DNA of 61,338 nt from Candidatus Methanodesulfokora washburnensis (lineage in GTDB: Archaea > Korarchaeota > Korarchaeia > Korarchaeales > Korarchaeaceae), in the NCBI RefSeq assembly GCF_003947435.1, contig NZ_RCOS01000066.1:1-61338 (forward strand), in the 5' to 3' direction. This document shows positions 1-56,035 of the stretch, one piece after another. The notes beneath the pieces were generated by a model. That model ran no database searches. It was not told the origin of the DNA and was given only the letters and a program-made list of their open reading frames with translations. Every line of letters starts with the position of its first letter. Positions within the stretch are counted from its first letter, which is position 1. A program made the translations under genes and the position numbers.

Positions 1-1099
1 TGGCTTTCAGGGGCAACGGGGCTCCCCTCATCCTGAGCATATTAATGCCTGCGGTCACATCCCTATCTTTCTCGTAACCGCACCGCAGGCATCTCATAAG
101 CCTGTGCCCATTCGGAGCTAGTCTTCCCCCACATATCGGGCACAGGCTTGAAGTTCCCCTCGGGCTAACATACTCAACTGGTAGACCATTAAGCTTAGCC
201 TTGTATTCAATATAGAACTGTAACATTCTAAAGTTCCAGTTATGCAACCTTCTGTTCAGCATTCTTCCCCTTTTTATGCGTTTTCTTATCCCCTTCAAGT
301 CCTCCATCAGTATTCCGAGATTGTGTTGCTTAGCAAAATTCACAATTTCCCTTGAAATTTTGTGGCATAGATCCCTTGTCCTTCTTTTCTCCCTGTCGGA
401 GTACTTCTTCAGAAGCCTCCGAGCAGTCCTTGGTTTATATTTAGCAAGCTTCTGAATATTTCTCCTGATGATAAAATAGGTTGTGTGAACTGTCCTAAGC
501 TCATGATCTACCCTTAAAACATGGGGATTTGAACTTACCGCTGTTATGTTAGATTCATTTATGTCGATGGCTATCCATTCCTTTGGATTCTGCAGATCCA
601 CACCTTTCTTGAAGGGAATGATTATTTTGTCCTCATTTATAGTCATCTCACCTGTCTTGAGCTTTCCCTCTTTCCAGGAATCTATAAACTTCTTCTGATA
701 TTCCCCGAATTTCAGATTTATGAACAGAAACTGCCTCGGCCTCACCGAGATCCTAACCCCGTCACCATAGAACTTGTAAAGCACTGGGTCAAGCTGCATG
801 AATAACTTCTTGGCCTCAGGCTTCTCCTTCTTATGCTTCTTCCTGTGTTTCTTGAGCATAGCTAAAGCTATTTTACAGGCTGAATGGCAGAAATGGGTTG
901 AGTAATCCCATCTCCGCTTCCACTCCTCATAAACTCCTTTTCTTAGCTTTGCGAAAGAGGTAATCCTTCTCTTGTGAGCATAATCTATGCAGAAGTTTAT
1001 CATATCCCTGAAGTCCTCAAGGAGCTTTCTCATCTCATCGTTGGGCTCATATCCGAAGGGAACCCCTAGGTAGACTTCCACAATACTGAGTATACACAT
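1..1099 (-). CDS. tnpB: TnpB (IS605/IS1341-type OrfB), 3' end cut by window edge
   Basis: The frame is open from an ATG at 1099 to the window edge (about 366 residues), so the protein is truncated by the window and not by decay. TnpB is the RNA-guided nuclease of IS200/IS605-family elements. I can place the RuvC-like D-E-D triad: Asp179 in AIDINES, Glu266 in GILMEDLKG, Asp347 in KDRDVTAG. A zinc ribbon follows the expected order (CPICGG at about 320, CLRCG at about 337). All key residues are present, so it may be active. No tnpA lies upstream, so it looks like an IS1341-type element. It is clearly different in sequence from the tnpB at 32245-33303. Confidence 0.88.
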   Translation of the reverse strand, partial: MCILSIVEVYLGVPFGYEPNDEMRKLLEDFRDMINFCIDYAHKRRITSFAKLRKGVYEEWKRRWDYSTHFCHSACKIALAMLKKHRKKHKKEKPEAKKLFMQLDPVLYKFYGDGVRISVRPRQFLFINLKFGEYQKKFIDSWKEGKLKTGEMTINEDKIIIPFKKGVDLQNPKEWIAIDINESNITAVSSNPHVLRVDHELRTVHTTYFIIRRNIQKLAKYKPRTARRLLKKYSDREKRRTRDLCHKISREIVNFAKQHNLGILMEDLKGIRKRIKRGRMLNRRLHNWNFRMLQFYIEYKAKLNGLPVEYVSPRGTSSLCPICGGRLAPNGHRLMRCLRCGYEKDRDVTAGINMLRMRGAPLPLKA

Positions 1100-3434: not shown

Positions 3435-3681
3435 TTGACATTCTCCGCGGCTAAAGCCGGGAGATTCCCGGTTTGTCAGCCTGAGGCTTCATCCTACCGA
3501 GTTCAGGGCTGTGTCAAGACCAAGGCATAACGCCCTACCAGCCCCTGCTATGGGCATGTAGCCCATAGCCCGCTTGAGTACGTTCACCGGCGACTCGCCA
3601 AAGATATGAGGAGCACTCTTATTTAAGGTTATCGGCAATTCATCCCACGGTTTTAACCGTGGGCTTTCTTGTCGATTTTCT
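3435..3681 (-). mobile_element. 247-bp internally deleted IS605-type derivative (MITE-like)
   Basis: On the minus strand this segment carries both ends of the element at 32165-33357 with almost all of tnpB removed. The left end has the hairpin with arms cacggt/accgtg (about 3646-3663). The right end has the hairpin ccggga/tcccgg followed by the terminal block ending tgtcaa at 3435. Between them is only the last part of tnpB (coding for GYMPIAGAGRALC). Both this copy and the long one follow CTTAC on their left. It is probably mobilised in trans, or is a dead remnant. Confidence 0.8.
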
Positions 3682-27500: not shown

Positions 27501-28363
27501 TCTATCAGCCCCCTAGTAGACAAGGCATCCCAGTAGGTGAAAACAGGGCCGTCTTTGCACACATACTTTATCGAGCTACTTGTTCCAACAATACAGTGAC
27601 CGCATTTGCCCACCCCACATCTCATTCTTCTTTCGAGTGTCATGTAAATCCTACCTGGGGAAAAATTCCTACTAAGAAGCTCTTTGACAACAAATTTGTA
27701 CATCACAGGCGGGCCGCAGACTATAGCATAGGTATTCTCAGCATCTAATTCCTCTCCTTCGAATAGATCTGTCACTAGACCCTTGCACACGCTCTGAGGG
27801 CAGTTGCTTTTCAGTTGAGAGAAGTGGGGGGAATCTATCTCATATGATAGCTTTACATAACAGTTCATATGTTGTCCATGTTGCAATAAATTAAGTATTT
27901 CATCTTTGAAAAGTATGTCCTCATAGCTCCTCGTGCCATAGAAAAGCCTTATCTCAGCATACTTTCCGCTATCTAAAGCATACCACAGAACGCTTCTTAA
28001 AGGAGCCATTCCAAGTCCTCCAGAAACAAGGAGCAACTTGCTTTTCTCCATTATTTCCATAGGAAAACCATTTCCATAAGGCCCTCTTATCCCAATAACA
28101 TCTCCTTCTCTCAGTTCATGCATGTATTTCGTCAGTCTTCCTGCCTTCCTTACGCAAAGCTGGATGTATCCCTTTCTCGTTGGAGTAGAGCAGATGCTTA
28201 TTGGAAATTCACCGAATCCCCTGAGATCCACCATGACGAACTGCCCTGGTTTATATGTAAAGCCATCATTTAGATGTGGATCAATAAAACGGAGTGTAAA
28301 GAGCTTCTCCTTCGGAGTTAACTCCCTTACTTCAAGCAATTTTGCGCTGAAGGATCGGAACAT
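27497..28363 (-). CDS. hydG: [NiFe] hydrogenase gamma, FAD/NAD(P)-binding subunit
   Basis: A 288-residue flavoprotein of the ferredoxin-NADP reductase fold that links the hydrogenase to NAD(P)H. Visible parts: a flavin domain (YKPGQFVMVDL), a nucleotide domain (LLLVSGGLGMAPLRSVL) and a C-terminal [2Fe-2S] site in RRMRCGVGKCGHC. I start at the ATG at 28363, which has GGGAGG upstream; a longer frame to 28405 lies inside the beta gene. It overlaps the beta gene by 32 bases. Confidence 0.93.
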   Translation of the reverse strand: MFRSFSAKLLEVRELTPKEKLFTLRFIDPHLNDGFTYKPGQFVMVDLRGFGEFPISICSTPTRKGYIQLCVRKAGRLTKYMHELREGDVIGIRGPYGNGFPMEIMEKSKLLLVSGGLGMAPLRSVLWYALDSGKYAEIRLFYGTRSYEDILFKDEILNLLQHGQHMNCYVKLSYEIDSPHFSQLKSNCPQSVCKGLVTDLFEGEELDAENTYAIVCGPPVMYKFVVKELLSRNFSPGRIYMTLERRMRCGVGKCGHCIVGTSSSIKYVCKDGPVFTYWDALSTRGLIE

Positions 28364-29369
28364 CGCATAACCTCCCTCTTGCAATTTCATAGAGAACTTT
28401 GACATGCTCTATTTTTGCAGGACAGAATTCGTCGCATCTTCCGCATCCAACACAGTTAAAGCCAGCCTGTGGATCGAAGTAGCTCTTGCAGTAATATCGA
28501 TTCCTGAATCTCTCAAGTCTAGTGGCTCTGAAGTTGTGGCCTCCTGCAACTAATCCATGGGTCTCCATAAAACATGAGTCGTATCTTCTTATTCTCTCAG
28601 CTTCATGAGGGCTTGTCCAAAGGTCACAGATCTCATAACATTTGCAAGTAGGGCAAACCATGTTGCAATTTCCGCATCCAAGGCATAATTCCTCATACTT
28701 TTTCCATATATCACTGTCATATGCTAGGTCGAAGAGATCGGCAAGTCCCTGCATATTTAACTCCTTTTTGAAGGATTTATTTCTCCTTTCCTCAAAATTC
28801 CTGAAGTTTTCCAGATCAGCTTCATCAGGCTCCTGAAGGAGGTTCCTATTCTCCCAGATTATTTCATGTCCTCTTACACTTCCGATTCTGATGAGCCATC
28901 CATCTGGAAGCTCATGAAGAAATAGATCAAAGCCATGCATTGCGAAATCAGTGCCCAAACTTTTACAGAAACAAAGCTCATCAGGCATACAACTGATGCC
29001 TATTATTATGGAGTTTTCTCTTCTCATTCTGTACAATGGATCCTCTGGATGGCTGAGATAAACCTTATCCAGTATTAGAAGCGCATTAATGTCGCAGGAA
29101 TGAACTCCAAACAAAACCTTCTTCTCCTCATCCCATTCCTCTATCCACTCACCATCTTTAAGCTTGAGAACTCTTTCCCTCGGCTTTATGAAGAACTTCT
29201 TGGGAGGGATCATTGTTCTTGTATAATTAAGCGACATATCCTCAGGGTCATTAATTTTCTCAAAGGAGTATATTCCTCCTCTTTTAACAGGACCGTAAAC
29301 AGTTCCCCATTTTTCAATACTCCTGTAAAATGCCTCAAAATGTTCCTGAGGTAACTTAAAGTACTGCAT
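28332..29369 (-). CDS. hydB: [NiFe] hydrogenase beta, iron-sulfur subunit
   Basis: A 345-residue first gene of the operon. Two [4Fe-4S] binding motifs lie in the C-terminal part: CLGCGNCNMVCPTCKC and CVGCGRCDEFCP. The N-terminal two-thirds resembles anaerobic sulfite reductase A/sulfhydrogenase beta and includes CDINALLILDK. The order B-G-D-A is that of the Pyrococcus soluble hydrogenase. About 220 AT-rich bases lie upstream before the divergent peptidase gene. Confidence 0.93.
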   Translation of the reverse strand: MQYFKLPQEHFEAFYRSIEKWGTVYGPVKRGGIYSFEKINDPEDMSLNYTRTMIPPKKFFIKPRERVLKLKDGEWIEEWDEEKKVLFGVHSCDINALLILDKVYLSHPEDPLYRMRRENSIIIGISCMPDELCFCKSLGTDFAMHGFDLFLHELPDGWLIRIGSVRGHEIIWENRNLLQEPDEADLENFRNFEERRNKSFKKELNMQGLADLFDLAYDSDIWKKYEELCLGCGNCNMVCPTCKCYEICDLWTSPHEAERIRRYDSCFMETHGLVAGGHNFRATRLERFRNRYYCKSYFDPQAGFNCVGCGRCDEFCPAKIEHVKVLYEIARGRLCDVPILQRKIA

Positions 29370-29601
29370 TTTTATCCCTCCTATATCATTATCTCTTGTC
29401 GGGATTTAAATAAAAATTTTTTCTTCTACATAGCAAGTGTTATACAGTTACAAATGTAATTTTTGGTCAGAAAAATCAGAAAAATTTCCTATACGCAGCA
29501 TAAATGTAAAAAATGACGTTGTAAAAGATCTATCAATAAACTATAAAATAAAGAATTGCTATCATGCTAGTTAAGAGATATTAAGAAAAATTTTGCCTAA
29601 A

Positions 29602-30474
29602 ATGTCGATGCAGACCATTATCGATACCTTCAACGATTTCATGCGCTACTGGACCCTTGCTTCTCCAAAGACACAGAAAGAAAAGCTTCAAGCATGGATG
29701 GCATATATCTCCAGCTATCCGGAGTTATTGGAAAAACAAATAAATAATTACAAGGAAATGGGTTTGAACTGGATGGAGTTTGCGGAGAGAGTTCTGTTTA
29801 GAATCGAGGATTATATTCCATTGATGAAAAAAGCTAGAGATAATGCTTTTGAGATCTGCAACAATGTATATGAACAAGCCACTAGGAGAATCAAGTTGAA
29901 TCTTGATGTCATTTTTGTTTTGTATGTCGGTATTGGATGTGGAGCTGGATGGGCAACCTTGTACAAAGGCCATCCTGCATGTCTTATTGGATTAGAGAAA
30001 ATCGCAGAACTGGGATGGTGGACCAAGGATAAACTGGAAGGACTTATAGCTCATGAGCTGGGACATTTAGTCCATATGATGTGGAGAAATGGCTTTAGAT
30101 CATTTGAGGAGGAGGAAAAGGATCCTGCATTTCTTCTATATAGTGAGGGATTTGCAAAAAGATGCGAGCATCTAATACTGGGAAGGGAAACATGGAATGA
30201 AGCGGATGATGAAAACTGGATTTCATGGTGCCGAAAACACATTAAATTCCTAGCTAAAGAATATTTGTCCAGGATAGAAAAAGCAGCACCCGTAAATGAT
30301 TTCTTTGGCGATTGGCTGAACATAAGGGGAAGAAGACAAACAGGTTATTTCCTTGGAAGAGAACTAATTTTATGGCTTGAAAGATCAAATAGCTTGGAAA
30401 GCATAGCAGTACTGTCCCCCGATGAGGTGAGAGAAAAGACAATCCGATTTCTAAGATTCATAGCAAAGAATTAA
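29602..30474 (+). CDS. HELGH-motif putative zinc metallopeptidase
   Basis: A roughly 290-residue protein with a clear zinc-protease helix, LIAHELGHLVHMMW, near residue 150, and a downstream Glu-rich region with SEGFAKRCEHLILG that could supply the third ligand. It looks like the DUF2268-type predicted peptidases, but I cannot assign a family firmly. There is no signal peptide, so it should be cytoplasmic. The ATG at 29602 is preferred to the TTG at 29593; a ctataaaat block lies about 55 bases upstream. It borders the decayed AbiE-like module. Confidence 0.65.
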   Translation: MSMQTIIDTFNDFMRYWTLASPKTQKEKLQAWMAYISSYPELLEKQINNYKEMGLNWMEFAERVLFRIEDYIPLMKKARDNAFEICNNVYEQATRRIKLNLDVIFVLYVGIGCGAGWATLYKGHPACLIGLEKIAELGWWTKDKLEGLIAHELGHLVHMMWRNGFRSFEEEEKDPAFLLYSEGFAKRCEHLILGRETWNEADDENWISWCRKHIKFLAKEYLSRIEKAAPVNDFFGDWLNIRGRRQTGYFLGRELILWLERSNSLESIAVLSPDEVREKTIRFLRFIAKN

Positions 30475-30555
30475 TTTTCCGCTTTATAATTACTTCCCTC
30501 TTCTCTGAATGTTTTCTTTAACAAAAACTTTTTAAGAGAAGACCCTAAAATATAT

Positions 30556-30723
30556 GTGCTCAGCGGGATTCGGTGGAAAATCCTAGATGCCCTAAGGAAG
30601 AGTGAAAAGCCAGTTGGAATAAGAAGGATATCCTATATGACTGGCTGCAGCATATCCGAGACTTGGAGGCAGATTAAGAAGATGGAAAAGATGAAACATC
30701 GTTACAAGAGTGAGCTACGGTAA
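30556..30723 (+). CDS. Small winged-helix/HTH protein, 55 aa (AbiEi-like N-terminal part)
   Basis: A short frame from a GTG at 30556 to TAA at 30723. The product, with IRWKILDALRKSEKPVGI then MTGCSISETWRQIKKMEK, is a plausible winged helix-turn-helix. It overlaps the next gene by 14 bases in another frame. In AbiEi antitoxins a winged helix is normally joined to the domain encoded by that next gene, so this is either a coupled split antitoxin or one gene broken by a frameshift near 30710. Confidence 0.5.
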   Translation: MLSGIRWKILDALRKSEKPVGIRRISYMTGCSISETWRQIKKMEKMKHRYKSELR

Positions 30724-31372
30724 ATACAGGAGGTATATCCTCAACTACAGGAATCCGATAGCAAAGCCATTATTGAGGCTTCTTGAGACCTCAGAGAGAT
30801 ATTCATGGCTTATTGGAAGGGATATCTATGATGCCATCAAGCAATTGGGTAAATACTACATTACCGGCTTGTTCTCAGTAAAAGGGCTAGTTTTAAACTT
30901 TGTTATCCCGAGAAAGCTTATCATAGCAACTAGTGGGGAAGAGGTTGAGAAAGCAACTATGATGAAGGAATGGTTCAACGGCATATATGAGATAGAGGTT
31001 GTGGAGAAACCCTTGGAAGAATCTCTATTTATTCAAGATACCTACGGAATTAACATAGCTTCCCCAGAACAAGCTGTAGCAGATTCAGCCACCTTCTTCG
31101 AGCTGGACCCTATGGGAAATGCAGAAGTTCTCCTTCTTATATTGTATAGAGAACTTGATTTCCCTCTCATATCCAAATTAGCTGAAATTCAGAAAGCCCG
31201 TTATAGGATATGGTTTGTCATGAGACTTGGAAGGCTCATAGGAATGCCCCTTCCATCTGAGGACTTCAAACCTACAGAGATAGTAAGCGATCCAAGCTTT
31301 GAGAGGATAATAACCGCTGCATTTCTCCGCCTCATAAGATCCGGTCAGCTAACGGGGGATAAAGGATGGTAG
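30710..31372 (+). CDS. AbiEi-like antitoxin domain protein
   Basis: A 220-residue protein beginning at a GTG inside the end of the small HTH gene. The block NIASPEQAVADSATF resembles the conserved region of AbiEi/COG5340 proteins, the antitoxin and repressor of type IV AbiE systems. The DNA-binding part is on the separate 55-residue frame upstream. The stop overlaps the next start by seven bases, as expected for an antitoxin-toxin pair. The family call rests on this pattern plus the downstream AbiEii-like gene. Confidence 0.55.
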   Translation: MSYGKYRRYILNYRNPIAKPLLRLLETSERYSWLIGRDIYDAIKQLGKYYITGLFSVKGLVLNFVIPRKLIIATSGEEVEKATMMKEWFNGIYEIEVVEKPLEESLFIQDTYGINIASPEQAVADSATFFELDPMGNAEVLLLILYRELDFPLISKLAEIQKARYRIWFVMRLGRLIGMPLPSEDFKPTEIVSDPSFERIITAAFLRLIRSGQLTGDKGW

Positions 31373-31611
31373 AATGGTTTAAACCGATAAAATGCTGGGA
31401 AAAAAGTCTTTTTGCAAGGGAATCCCTTAAAGATATAGCTGACAAATTAGGATGGGCTCTTGGATATGATATTGTGGAGAGAGAAATGTTATACTATGAT
31501 ACAATGTTCTGCTTTCTCACATATTTTCCAGAGGAGCTAGTGTTTGTCGGAGGATCGATGATAAACAGAATTTACATAAAAAAAGAGGAATTAGATTCTC
31601 TTTTGACTTAG
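31366..31611 (+). pseudogene. AbiEii-like nucleotidyltransferase toxin, 5' fragment
   Basis: The 81-codon frame covers the N-terminal helices and the first half of the nucleotidyltransferase motif (LVFVGGSMINRIYI). It then ends because of a one-base frame change at a run of seven A (about 31578-31584). One extra A, or a -1 slip, would join it to RGIRFSFDLDTV in the next frame, completing the GG...RFSxDLD signature of COG2253/AbiEii. Confidence 0.6.
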
Positions 31612-32164
31612 ATACCGTGACAATTAATCCTTTTTCTGGAAAATCAATGATTGTAGAGAAGCTAATTTTATTGAACAGGGCTTTGGATGAGGAGGGATTT
31701 TCCACTCCACTAAAATTAGGGGATATAGAGCTCAGGCTTGGCGAGGTGATAATAGATACAAAGAAGGATATATTTCCGGATGTGCTGTCCCTTAAGAGAA
31801 TAGTTCCAGCCATGACCTTCGGAACACCGATATCGCAGTACATAAGGTCTAGATATGGGGTAGATCCGGGAAGAGAGCCCTATGCCTCATATATTTCAGA
31901 GCTGAGAAATTCCCTTGGTTTCATGCCAATGCTTGAGGAGGTAAGAATAGAGGTGGGAATTTCAAAGAAAGGCTTTCAGGACACAGTGGAAGCAGAGGTA
32001 GGATCGATAATAGAACCTTATGCAAGGCCCAAACTCAGGTTAAAGACCAGAATTTCCTCACTGGAGTCCTCTATCTCAGCAAAGCTGAAAAGCCTATCGA
32101 GAAGTTTTTCAGAGGAGTTGTTGATGGATTTTGTAAGGGATTTGTGCGATCTAAGAATGCTTAC
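31582..32164 (+). pseudogene. AbiEii-like toxin, central part, interrupted by IS element
   Basis: This frame starts in effect with RGIRFSFDLDTVTIN, carries IELRLGEVIIDTKKD, and reaches RDLCDLRML, which fits the last conserved motif of AbiEii (usually a KDlyDL-type helix). The coding sequence is cut at codon ...CTT AC at 32164, where the IS605-type element begins. The open frame runs on to 32207 inside the element, giving a false tail. Confidence 0.6.
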
Positions 32165-33357
32165 ATGGAACCCGACAAGAAAGCCTACGGTTTTAACCGT
32201 GGGATGAATTGACGATAGGCTTAAATATAGCTTAGGATAATTTCATGTCAAGCGAGTCGCTCATGAAGGCTAGGAAGACCATTAAGGCTAAGATTCTTGA
32301 GCTTCGAAAGGGCAAGGAAGAGCTTCTTAAACGAGAATACGAAAATTTTCAACGCTACCTTCATGGAGACAAGTCTGTCCTGCTCTATTCAGCTACACGT
32401 CAACAGGCTGAAAGGCTTCTTAGAAGGTTGAAGGGGAAACTTAAGCCGAACAAAGAATATCCAATGATTCTAAGAAGAGACATTTATAGAGCAAACACTA
32501 AGCTTACGCCTTATTGGCTAAAGATACCCATCTATGGAGTTAAAGGCGGGATAAACGTTCCAATTAAAACACATGAACCAATAACAGAAGACATGATTTG
32601 CAGAGAGGCTAAAATTTTAAGGCGAAATGGTGAATAGTTCGTCTACATAACTGTAGAGAAAGAAGTTGAAGAAAGAAACCCCAAATCAGTTTTAGCTGTC
32701 GATTTAGGGATAAGGTGGATTGCCACAACAGTAAACTCCAATAATCCGAAACCGAAATTCTATGACAAAGAGCTTAGACGTGTCAAAGGACATTATTTCT
32801 ACCTCAGAAGGTCTCTGGCTTTGAAGAAAGCATACAAAACAATAAAGAAGATTGGAAATAAAGAAAGGCGAGTAGTAAATGATATACTGCATAAGATAAG
32901 CAGAGCGATTGTTAATGAGGCCTTAGAAAACGATTCTATGATTGTTCTCGGAAAACTCAGAGGCATAAGAAAGAACGGCAAAGGAAGAAAATTCAAAAGA
33001 AAATTGAACAATGGATTCCCATACCACAGATTAAGCCAATTCATAGAATATAAAGCCAGATGGGTTGGGATAAAGGTGATCAAGATAAGTGAAAGAAACA
33101 CATCGAAAACATGCCATAGATGTGGGCACAGGGGGCTCCGAGTCGGAAGCCTCTTCAAATGCCCGCATTGTGGCTATGTGTGCAATGCAGACTACAATGG
33201 TGCGATGAACATGCTCAAGCGGGCTACGGGCTACATGCCCATAGCAGGGGCTGGTAGGGCATTATGCCCTGGTCTTGACACAGCCCTGAACCCGGTAGGA
33301 TGAGGCCTCAGGCCGACAAACCGGGAATCTCCCGGCTTTAGCCGTGGAGAATGTCAA
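32165..33357 (+). mobile_element. 1193-bp IS605/IS1341-type element (tnpB only)
   Basis: The left end has a hairpin (acggtt-tt-aaccgt, 32187-32200) and the right end has ccggga/tcccgg (33321-33335) and a terminal block finishing tgtcaa. The edges are set by comparison with the 247-bp derivative at 3435-3681; both copies follow CTTAC and neither has a target duplication, as expected for this family. There is no tnpA. Deleting 32165-33357 rejoins the AbiEii-like frame exactly (CTT AC|A CTT AAA). Confidence 0.8.
32245..33303 (+). pseudogene. tnpB: tnpB with internal TAG and lost catalytic Glu
   Basis: Read through one TAG at 32635-32637, the frame encodes a full TnpB of about 352 residues. Asp is kept in LAVDLGIRW and in CNADYNGAMNML, and the zinc ribbon is intact (CHRCGHRG, CPHCGY). 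The middle catalytic Glu is Gly (MIVLGKLRGI, where active proteins have E-D/N-L). With the stop codon this makes the nuclease inactive. The second half has internal starts, so a C-terminal fragment could still be made. Confidence 0.8.
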
Positions 33358-33571
33358 ACTTAAACATGACAGAAAGAAGCTGAAAAGCTTAATAGAGAAT
33401 GAAAAAATTGATATTAATGCTGTTTTGAGTAATTTAAATGATATAAAATCCAAGGGAAAGCATATTTACGAAAATTCGTGGCATCTCTCCCTTGTGAAGG
33501 AGAGCATGAGCTGGGAGAAGCTGTGTAGTGTCGTTGAAAGAGGCATAGGGAGAATTCTAGCAGACAGCTAA
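33358..33571 (+). pseudogene. AbiEii-like toxin, 3' remnant after the IS element
   Basis: Immediately after the element the frame continues LKHDRKKLKSLIENEKIDIN and ends at TAA 33571, adding about 70 residues. It is in phase with the fragment that ends at 32164 once the element is removed. The apparent ATG at 33344 lies inside the IS end and is probably not a real start. It ends five bases before the convergent AmrS-like gene. Confidence 0.55.
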
Positions 33572-33575
33572 TTTA

Positions 33576-34589
33576 CTACTTTGGTATATACCTTCCCCTC
33601 ATGTATATTTTCTGTCCGCATCTAGGGCATCTATACACACCTTCCTCGTATACAGGGGAGAAGTAGGTAACCCTGTGCCAGCTCCTTCTAATGAGAACCT
33701 TCCCGCAGTTGGGACATTTTGTGCTCTCCAGCTCCGGATCTCCAAGATTACCTACGTATACATATTTTATCCCCTCCTTCCTTGCTTTTTCAGCAAAACT
33801 TAGCAGATCCCTCAAGGGAGTCGGGGGTTCCCTCCATAGATGTGCTGGAAAGTACCTGTTTATGTGAAGCGGGACATCGGGGCCCAGAAGGGAGAGATGC
33901 TTGTTCAACAACCAGTCAGTACATTCCTCGAAATTATTTGCCTTTGGAACTAGTAAAAAGACTATCTCAACATGTCCGCCCATTTCAAGAGCTATCTTGG
34001 CATTTCTGAATGGTATCTCGTGATTTATATGAGGAAGAACTCTTCTTTGTGCCATTGAAGGACAACCCTTCACATCTATGCTCCACCCATCAGCTCCTGC
34101 TTCTATAAGCATCTTCATTGCTTTCTCCGTCTGGTAGCCATTTGTCACCATCATTGAGTAAAGCCCCTTCTTCGAAGCTAGTGAGAATACATCCATTATG
34201 AAATCGAAGTTTGTGGTCGGTTCATTGAAGCTGGCTGACATCCCCTCATCTCCCTCTTTTATCGCCCTTTCTACAAGATCCTCCGGACTAAACCTCTTCC
34301 TTCCAGATGGCCACCTGAAGCTTATGTGATCGTTCTGACACCAAGGACAGTAAAAGTTACAGCCCCAGTTGGAGAAAGTAAGAGCTGTGCTATTTGGCCA
34401 GTAATGAAACAGAGGCTTTAGCTCTATGGGTCTGCTTTCAACAGCACTTAAATCTCCATATCCTATGTGTTTAAGCCTTCCATCCGAATTCATGTAGTTC
34501 CCGCATGCTCCCTTCATTCCAACTGGAATTAAGCATCTTCTCTCGCATATCTCGCATACAATTCCCTTATCTGATGAGGAGTACAGCAA
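33576..34589 (-). CDS. AmrS-like radical SAM enzyme (AmmeMemoRadiSam type)
   Basis: A 337-residue protein with the cluster motif CNFYCPWCQN (spaced CX3CX2C), preceded by an N-terminal Cys group (CEICERRC) and ending in a zinc ribbon (CPNCGK...CPRCGQ). The pattern fits the PflA-like radical SAM protein of the AMMECR1-MEMO-radical SAM system, whose target is not known. The AMMECR1 and MEMO partners are not in the window. The start is a TTG at 34589 with no strong ribosome-binding site. Confidence 0.85.
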   Translation of the reverse strand: MLYSSSDKGIVCEICERRCLIPVGMKGACGNYMNSDGRLKHIGYGDLSAVESRPIELKPLFHYWPNSTALTFSNWGCNFYCPWCQNDHISFRWPSGRKRFSPEDLVERAIKEGDEGMSASFNEPTTNFDFIMDVFSLASKKGLYSMMVTNGYQTEKAMKMLIEAGADGWSIDVKGCPSMAQRRVLPHINHEIPFRNAKIALEMGGHVEIVFLLVPKANNFEECTDWLLNKHLSLLGPDVPLHINRYFPAHLWREPPTPLRDLLSFAEKARKEGIKYVYVGNLGDPELESTKCPNCGKVLIRRSWHRVTYFSPVYEEGVYRCPRCGQKIYMRGRYIPK

Positions 34590-55671: not shown

Positions 55672-56035
55672 ATCACCTACTCCTCAAAAGCAGAGGGGTT
55701 TTTAAAACTTTGCTGCGGACAACAATTTTATAAAGACTTATTATTAGTTATTGAATTCGGAATTGTTTAGGTCGTAAGTAGCATTAGAGCTCCCTTGAAT
55801 GAGCTTTACAGAAAAAGGTGCCCAGAAAGCCCAGAGCTTTAGCCGTGGAGAGTGCCAAATTTCCGGTCTGGTGCAGAATAGAGAGCTGAATGAGCAAAAG
55901 AGGACTGATGAATTTCAAGATATCAAGAATCATAATCACTAACTTCTAATATAAGAATTGAACACATTCAATATTTAAACTTATATCTCTATACCCAACA
56001 GCAGGTTTTTCTTAAACCACTTATTATGTTTACAT
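55672..56035. other. Intergenic region with an IS end remnant
   Basis: The left part holds the P1/L12 promoter (gttttaaaaacc on the minus strand, about 55698-55710). A short IS right-end remnant lies at 55835-55858. The rest is AT-rich with no supported gene. Confidence 0.5.
55835..55858 (+). mobile_element. Right-end remnant of the IS605-type family
   Basis: These 24 bases match the right terminus of the element at 33334-33357 at 21 of 24 positions (agctttagccgtggag then agtgccaa). The bases just before (agaaagccca) resemble the left terminus, so it may be an extreme internal deletion with both tips left. Confidence 0.55.

What the first reader, a model, noticed from the sequence alone, without database searches (positions are those of the whole stretch)
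31366..33571. AbiEii-like toxin gene inactivated by an IS insertion that can be removed exactly
Deleting 32165-33357 rejoins CTT AC|A CTT AAA without a frame change and restores a toxin with a nucleotidyltransferase motif, a terminal conserved helix (RDLCDLRML) and about 70 more residues. The insertion falls just after the last conserved motif. With the antitoxin intact this may be toxin silencing by transposition.
Basis: partly seen in the sequence, partly recalled or inferred. Interest (0 to 1): 0.62.

Follow-up and report, generated by a model that had tools for sequence, protein, structure and literature searches.

The report
Decayed toxin-antitoxin pair carrying IS608-like insertion
In a hot-spring korarchaeon a toxin-antitoxin gene pair is broken at three places (a frameshift in each gene plus a mobile element in the toxin), so the element could leave without a scar but the toxin would still be dead: an ordinary case of recent gene decay.

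Summary
An IS200/IS605-family (IS608-like) element lies at exactly 32165-33357 in an AbiEii-like toxin gene. It made no target duplication, and the two flanks align to adjacent positions in an intact 335-aa homologue in a Methanodesulfokora relative (same neighbours). The boundaries are confirmed by 13 shorter copies elsewhere in the genome: all end in TCAA, and 10 of the 11 with a readable left end follow TTAC. The end anatomy (TTAC, AAAG, hairpin; GAAT, hairpin, TCAA) matches published IS608.

The antitoxin is not intact: a 1-nt indel separates its winged helix from the rest. The toxin is also frameshifted by 2 nt in an A-run between GGS and RFSFDLD of its nucleotidyltransferase motif, upstream of the element, so losing the element would not restore a reading frame. 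No Y1 transposase was found in this genome, and the element's TnpB carries a TAG before all its catalytic residues. Nine neighbouring genes are undamaged, and dN/dS is low (0.05-0.16). This is recent decay of a TA locus, not reversible silencing. Minor interest: the short copies keep a conserved, covarying ~155-nt right-end RNA without tnpB.

The parts
30556..30723 (+). 5' part of the antitoxin gene: winged-helix domain
   Evidence: tblastn of the intact 271-aa antitoxin, residues 1-47, 79% identity; weak HTH_24/IclR matches below Pfam's cut-offs
30691..30697 (+). Antitoxin frameshift (1-nt length difference from the intact relative)
   Evidence: DNA alignment; frame change in tblastn
30710..31372 (+). 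3' part of the antitoxin gene (C-terminal domain), out of frame with the winged helix
   Evidence: tblastn residues 39-271, 78% identity
31366..31584 (+). Toxin gene, 5' part with GGS of nucleotidyltransferase motif I
   Evidence: tblastn residues 1-73, 84% identity; PADLOC AbiEii E=0.0086
31578..31584 (+). Toxin frameshift in a run of seven A, between GGS and RFSFDLD (2-nt length difference from the intact relative)
31584..32164 (+). Toxin gene, middle part (RFSFDLD to RDLCDLRML)
   Evidence: tblastn to residue 265, 78% identity
32161..32164 (+). TTAC: target / left cleavage site, outside the element
   Evidence: same as IS608 CL (PMC5934647); shared by 10 of 11 readable short copies
32165..33357 (+). 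IS608-like tnpB-only insertion element, no target duplication
32179..32203 (+). Left-end guide AAAG followed by subterminal hairpin
   Evidence: sequence; DNA fold z = -2.2; compare IS608 GL AAAG
32245..33303 (+). tnpB, one in-frame TAG at 32635-32637; DLG RuvC-I and alternative RuvC-II glutamate
   Evidence: Ealt definition in PMC10711439
33203..33357 (+). Conserved 155-nt right end: predicted right-end (omega) RNA scaffold, ending in GAAT, hairpin, TCAA
   Evidence: 88-98% identical in most short copies; consensus fold with covariation in one helix; compare ~150-nt reRNA of ISDra2
33358..33373 (+). Predicted guide of the right-end RNA: 16 nt of toxin-gene flank
   Evidence: inference from the reRNA layout (PMC8612924)
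33358..33571 (+). Toxin gene, 3' part (C-terminal ~70 residues)
   Evidence: tblastn residues 267-334, 69% identity

Best explanation
This is a recently inactivated chromosomal AbiE-type toxin-antitoxin pair in a korarchaeon of the Methanodesulfokora genus. Both genes carry frameshifts. A non-autonomous (tnpB-only) IS608-like element, inserted after a TTAC in the toxin's 3' part by single-strand 'peel and paste', is a third lesion. The insertion is chemically reversible in principle, as for every IS200/IS605 element. Here reversal would not give back a toxin, and the transposase needed for it (TnpA) is not detectable in the genome. Shown: the lesions, the exact boundaries, the intact syntenic relative and the undamaged neighbours. 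Inferred: the order of the lesions, the mode of transposition and the loss of function.
For: The intact relative G002 has toxin (335 aa) and antitoxin (271 aa) as single frames between the same neighbours. Nine neighbours (Rad50, Mre11, HerA, NurA, radical SAM, four hydrogenase-type genes) are each one full-length tblastn match in the window, while the antitoxin falls into 2 pieces and the toxin into 3. Flanks abut without duplication. Thirteen short copies share the ends TTAC|...TCAA, with one left-end exception and two left ends not on the contig. The end anatomy equals published IS608. No Y1_Tnp match in G000, though the same search finds it in three family members. dN/dS of the pieces is 0.05-0.16 against 0.05-0.07 for four neighbours, so loss is recent.
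Against: dN/dS near that of the neighbours could also mean that the genes still work and the two indels are assembly errors; the A-run is a plausible place for one. No reads were available. The assembly is a draft (179 contigs, 98% complete, 5.5% contamination), so a tnpA could be missing from it.
Confidence: 0.82

Rival explanations
1. The two frameshifts are assembly or sequencing errors; the antitoxin is intact and the toxin is interrupted only by the element, so the insertion is the sole, reversible inactivating event.
For: Low dN/dS; the toxin indel lies in a 7-A run; a lone loss of the toxin is tolerated while the antitoxin stays.
Against: Two indels in ~1.8 kb of TA coding sequence and none in ~11 kb of neighbouring genes of the same contig; the antitoxin indel is in a run of only three A; no TnpA to excise the element.
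Confidence: 0.12
2. The toxin frameshift is programmed or phase-variable: slippage on the A-run (A AAA AAA G) makes a small amount of full-length toxin, as in contingency loci.
For: The shift needed fits -1 slippage on A AAA AAA; low dN/dS.
Against: The intact relative reads through in frame without a slippery run; the element lies downstream in any case; the antitoxin frameshift is not at a slippery site.
Confidence: 0.04
3. The element was selected as a silencer of a toxin whose antitoxin had decayed: antitoxin loss came first and insertion in the toxin rescued the cell. This is a variant of the best explanation that adds an order and a selective reason, so its confidence overlaps with it.
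For: Of the 12 copies that can be tested, only this one has long open frames on both sides.
Against: The toxin frameshift alone would already have rescued the cell; the order cannot be read from one genome.
Confidence: 0.2

Closest known systems
IS608 (IS200/IS605 family) and its tnpB-only relatives
   Same: TTAC target kept on the left flank, AAAG and GAAT guide tetranucleotides, subterminal hairpins, TCAA right cleavage site, no target duplication, tnpB with its 3' end inside the right-end RNA
   Different: No tnpA in the element or detected in the genome; TnpB is of the alternative-glutamate type and has an in-frame TAG
AbiE / MenAT toxin-antitoxin family (AbiEii, PF08843)
   Same: Pol-beta-type nucleotidyltransferase motif (GGS...RFSFDLD), RDLCDL motif, upstream winged-helix antitoxin overlapping the toxin start
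   Different: The intact same-genus toxin is below Pfam detection and is linked through PADLOC AbiEii models and ~30%-identical phylum-level relatives that pass the PF08843 cut-off; the copy here is frameshifted and interrupted
Palindrome-associated / MITE-like derivatives of IS200/IS605 (from memory)
   Same: Short copies with both ends and no genes
   Different: These keep the whole 155-nt right-end RNA, with covariation in one helix

Membership tests
IS200/IS605 family (IS608-like) | Insertion 3' to a short fixed target, no duplication | tested here: met
   TTAC, flanks abut in the intact relative; copies
IS200/IS605 family (IS608-like) | Subterminal hairpins with guide tetranucleotides and right cleavage site | tested here: met
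   AAAG, GAAT, TCAA and hairpins against PMC5934647
IS200/IS605 family (IS608-like) | Y1 (HUH) transposase TnpA | tested here: not met
   None in the element; no PF01797 match in the genome. tnpB-only elements are known, so this makes it a non-autonomous derivative
TnpB | RuvC D-E-D triad and zinc ribbon | tested here: met
   DLG; glutamate six residues before CxxC (alternative position); NADYNGA; Cas12f1-like_TNB E=8.7e-26, guided_TnpB E=2.1e-38. An in-frame TAG precedes all three
AbiEii (PF08843) | Match to the family profile | tested here: inconclusive
   Pieces: none in Pfam. Same-genus intact homologue: none in Pfam, PADLOC AbiEii E=1.8e-9. Relatives 30% identical: PF08843 E=1.6e-14 and 6e-12, over the cut-off
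AbiEii (PF08843) | Nucleotidyltransferase motifs in one open frame | tested here: not met
   Motif I split by a frameshift, 3' part split off by the element: a pseudogene of the family
AbiE toxin-antitoxin system | Toxicity and neutralisation | not testable with these tools
   Needs expression

The most novel reading that the evidence does not exclude
The lineage-specific short copies (at least 13, up to 18, in this genome) are tnpB-less carriers of a selected right-end RNA. Each brings a different 16-nt guide from its own flank and could work in trans with a TnpB, so that one RNA-guided nuclease protects a whole set of non-autonomous copies from loss.
Probability: 0.2. Interest if true: 0.45.

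Novelty: new member of a known kind. Interest (0 to 1): 0.2.

Why it matters
Mostly a caution: the insertion is exactly removable, but removal would not give back a working gene, because the toxin and its antitoxin are broken elsewhere. It documents an IS608-type element in Korarchaeia with its exact ends, and a family of short derivatives that keep the right-end RNA, a small natural set for studying TnpB guide RNAs without their gene.

Tried and rejected
Rfam search of 30400-33800 with E up to 1: no match. NCBIfam gave no family for either gene; Pfam gave only sub-threshold HTH matches, and chance matches for the toxin pieces. PDB sequence search with the toxin profile: no meaningful match. 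I first read the missing canonical RuvC-II glutamate (IVLGKLRG) as a dead active site; rejected, because the intact 43%-identical TnpB in G050 has the same IVLGKL and both have the alternative glutamate described in PMC10711439. Read-through of TAG as a general recoding: unlikely, since TAG ends 7 of 47 long open frames of the window. Literature searches for AbiEii with insertion sequence and pseudogene gave no paper on this mechanism in titles or abstracts.

Full report
What is there. The window is contig C66 of a 2.94-Mb archaeal draft genome. Its closest matching relative with this locus is a MAG named Candidatus Methanodesulfokora sp. (Korarchaeia by name, from my own knowledge). Between a hydrogenase-type gene (28332-29369, -) and a radical-SAM gene (33576-34589, -) lies a + strand pair. 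In the same-genus genome G002 the same two neighbours enclose an intact pair: an antitoxin of 271 aa that overlaps the start of a toxin of 335 aa.

Family. The window pieces themselves give no Pfam or NCBIfam match of note. The intact toxin of G002 matches PADLOC AbiEii models (E=1.8e-9). Its 30%-identical relatives in the same phylum, which also have an upstream winged-helix partner, pass the PF08843 cut-off. Invariant residues of the three include GG...R.Y.S..RFS.D.D and the DL.DL stretch. AbiEii/MenT toxins are nucleotidyltransferases whose N-terminal motifs I and II resemble DNA polymerase beta (PMC10435456).

The insertion. Aligned separately, the left flank matches the intact gene up to position 2043 of L004 (reverse complement) and the right flank from 2047. 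One codon lies between, and no bases are duplicated. The element, 32165-33357, follows TTAC and ends in TCAA. Thirteen shorter copies in the same genome share its right 113-156 nt at 91-98% identity. All 13 end in TCAA, and of the 11 whose left end is on the contig 10 follow TTAC and one (L017) has TTAT or is ambiguous. AAAG stands before the left hairpin and GAAT before the right one. IS608 has precisely TTAC, AAAG, GAAT and TCAA in these roles (PMC5934647). Such elements leave no duplication and are excised exactly by TnpA (PMC8612924).

The other two lesions. The antitoxin changes frame near 30691-30697, between its winged helix and the rest. The toxin changes frame in the A-run 31578-31584, inside the nucleotidyltransferase motif. 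Both lie upstream of the element. Nine neighbours over 25.5-41.3 kb are each a single full-length match. Pairwise dN/dS is 0.05-0.11 for the antitoxin and the first two toxin pieces, 0.16 for the toxin's last piece, and 0.05-0.07 for four neighbours. The locus was therefore under purifying selection for most of the divergence from G002, and was lost recently. Without reads I cannot exclude that one or both indels are assembly errors.

Can the element leave? It carries only tnpB. No Y1 transposase was found in the genome, whereas the same profile finds one in three members of the family. TnpB has a TAG at codon 131, before the RuvC aspartate (residue 153); the next listed start in frame is at 32821, beyond it. 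The RuvC-II glutamate is in the alternative position six residues before the zinc ribbon, as in a described TnpB clade, so the protein type is not dead by design; this copy is interrupted.

The short copies. They are about 235-310 bp long with no tnpB, and most have no long open frame on either side, so the toxin copy is the only clear insertion in a gene. They keep the last 155 nt, which folds into several helices; 99.7% of cells are paired, and one helix has both-side changes in three copies. The three copies may share one ancestral change. The length and place equal those of the ~150-nt reRNA of ISDra2, whose last ~16 nt come from the flank. DNA search finds 19 places in this genome and only traces in two of 23 family members.

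Verdict. A real and exactly bounded IS608-like insertion in an AbiEii-like toxin gene, but in a locus that is broken in both genes. 'Silenced but restorable toxin' is not supported. Ordinary, with a minor lead in the tnpB-less copies.

Noticed in passing
window 3435-3681 (-): A short tnpB-less copy of the same element family, with right-end RNA 94% identical.
   Followed up: yes
window 55836-55862: 27-nt match to the element's right terminus, perhaps a degenerate copy.
   Followed up: no
window 8-625 (-): Another, different tnpB with the canonical glutamate, close to the contig end.
   Followed up: partly
window 29593-30474 (+): 293-aa predicted HExxH-type protein between the hydrogenase-type gene and the antitoxin; there is no room for it at the same place in G002 (about 320 bp).
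   Followed up: no
L001 (G000:C30:14573-15175) and L002 (G000:C140:8625-8774): Two other AbiEii matches in the same genome, in open frames of 273 and 214 aa.
   Followed up: no
L061 (G050:C48): Intact TnpB relative, 43% identical, with the same IVLGKL and alternative glutamate, in a distant archaeon.
   Followed up: partly
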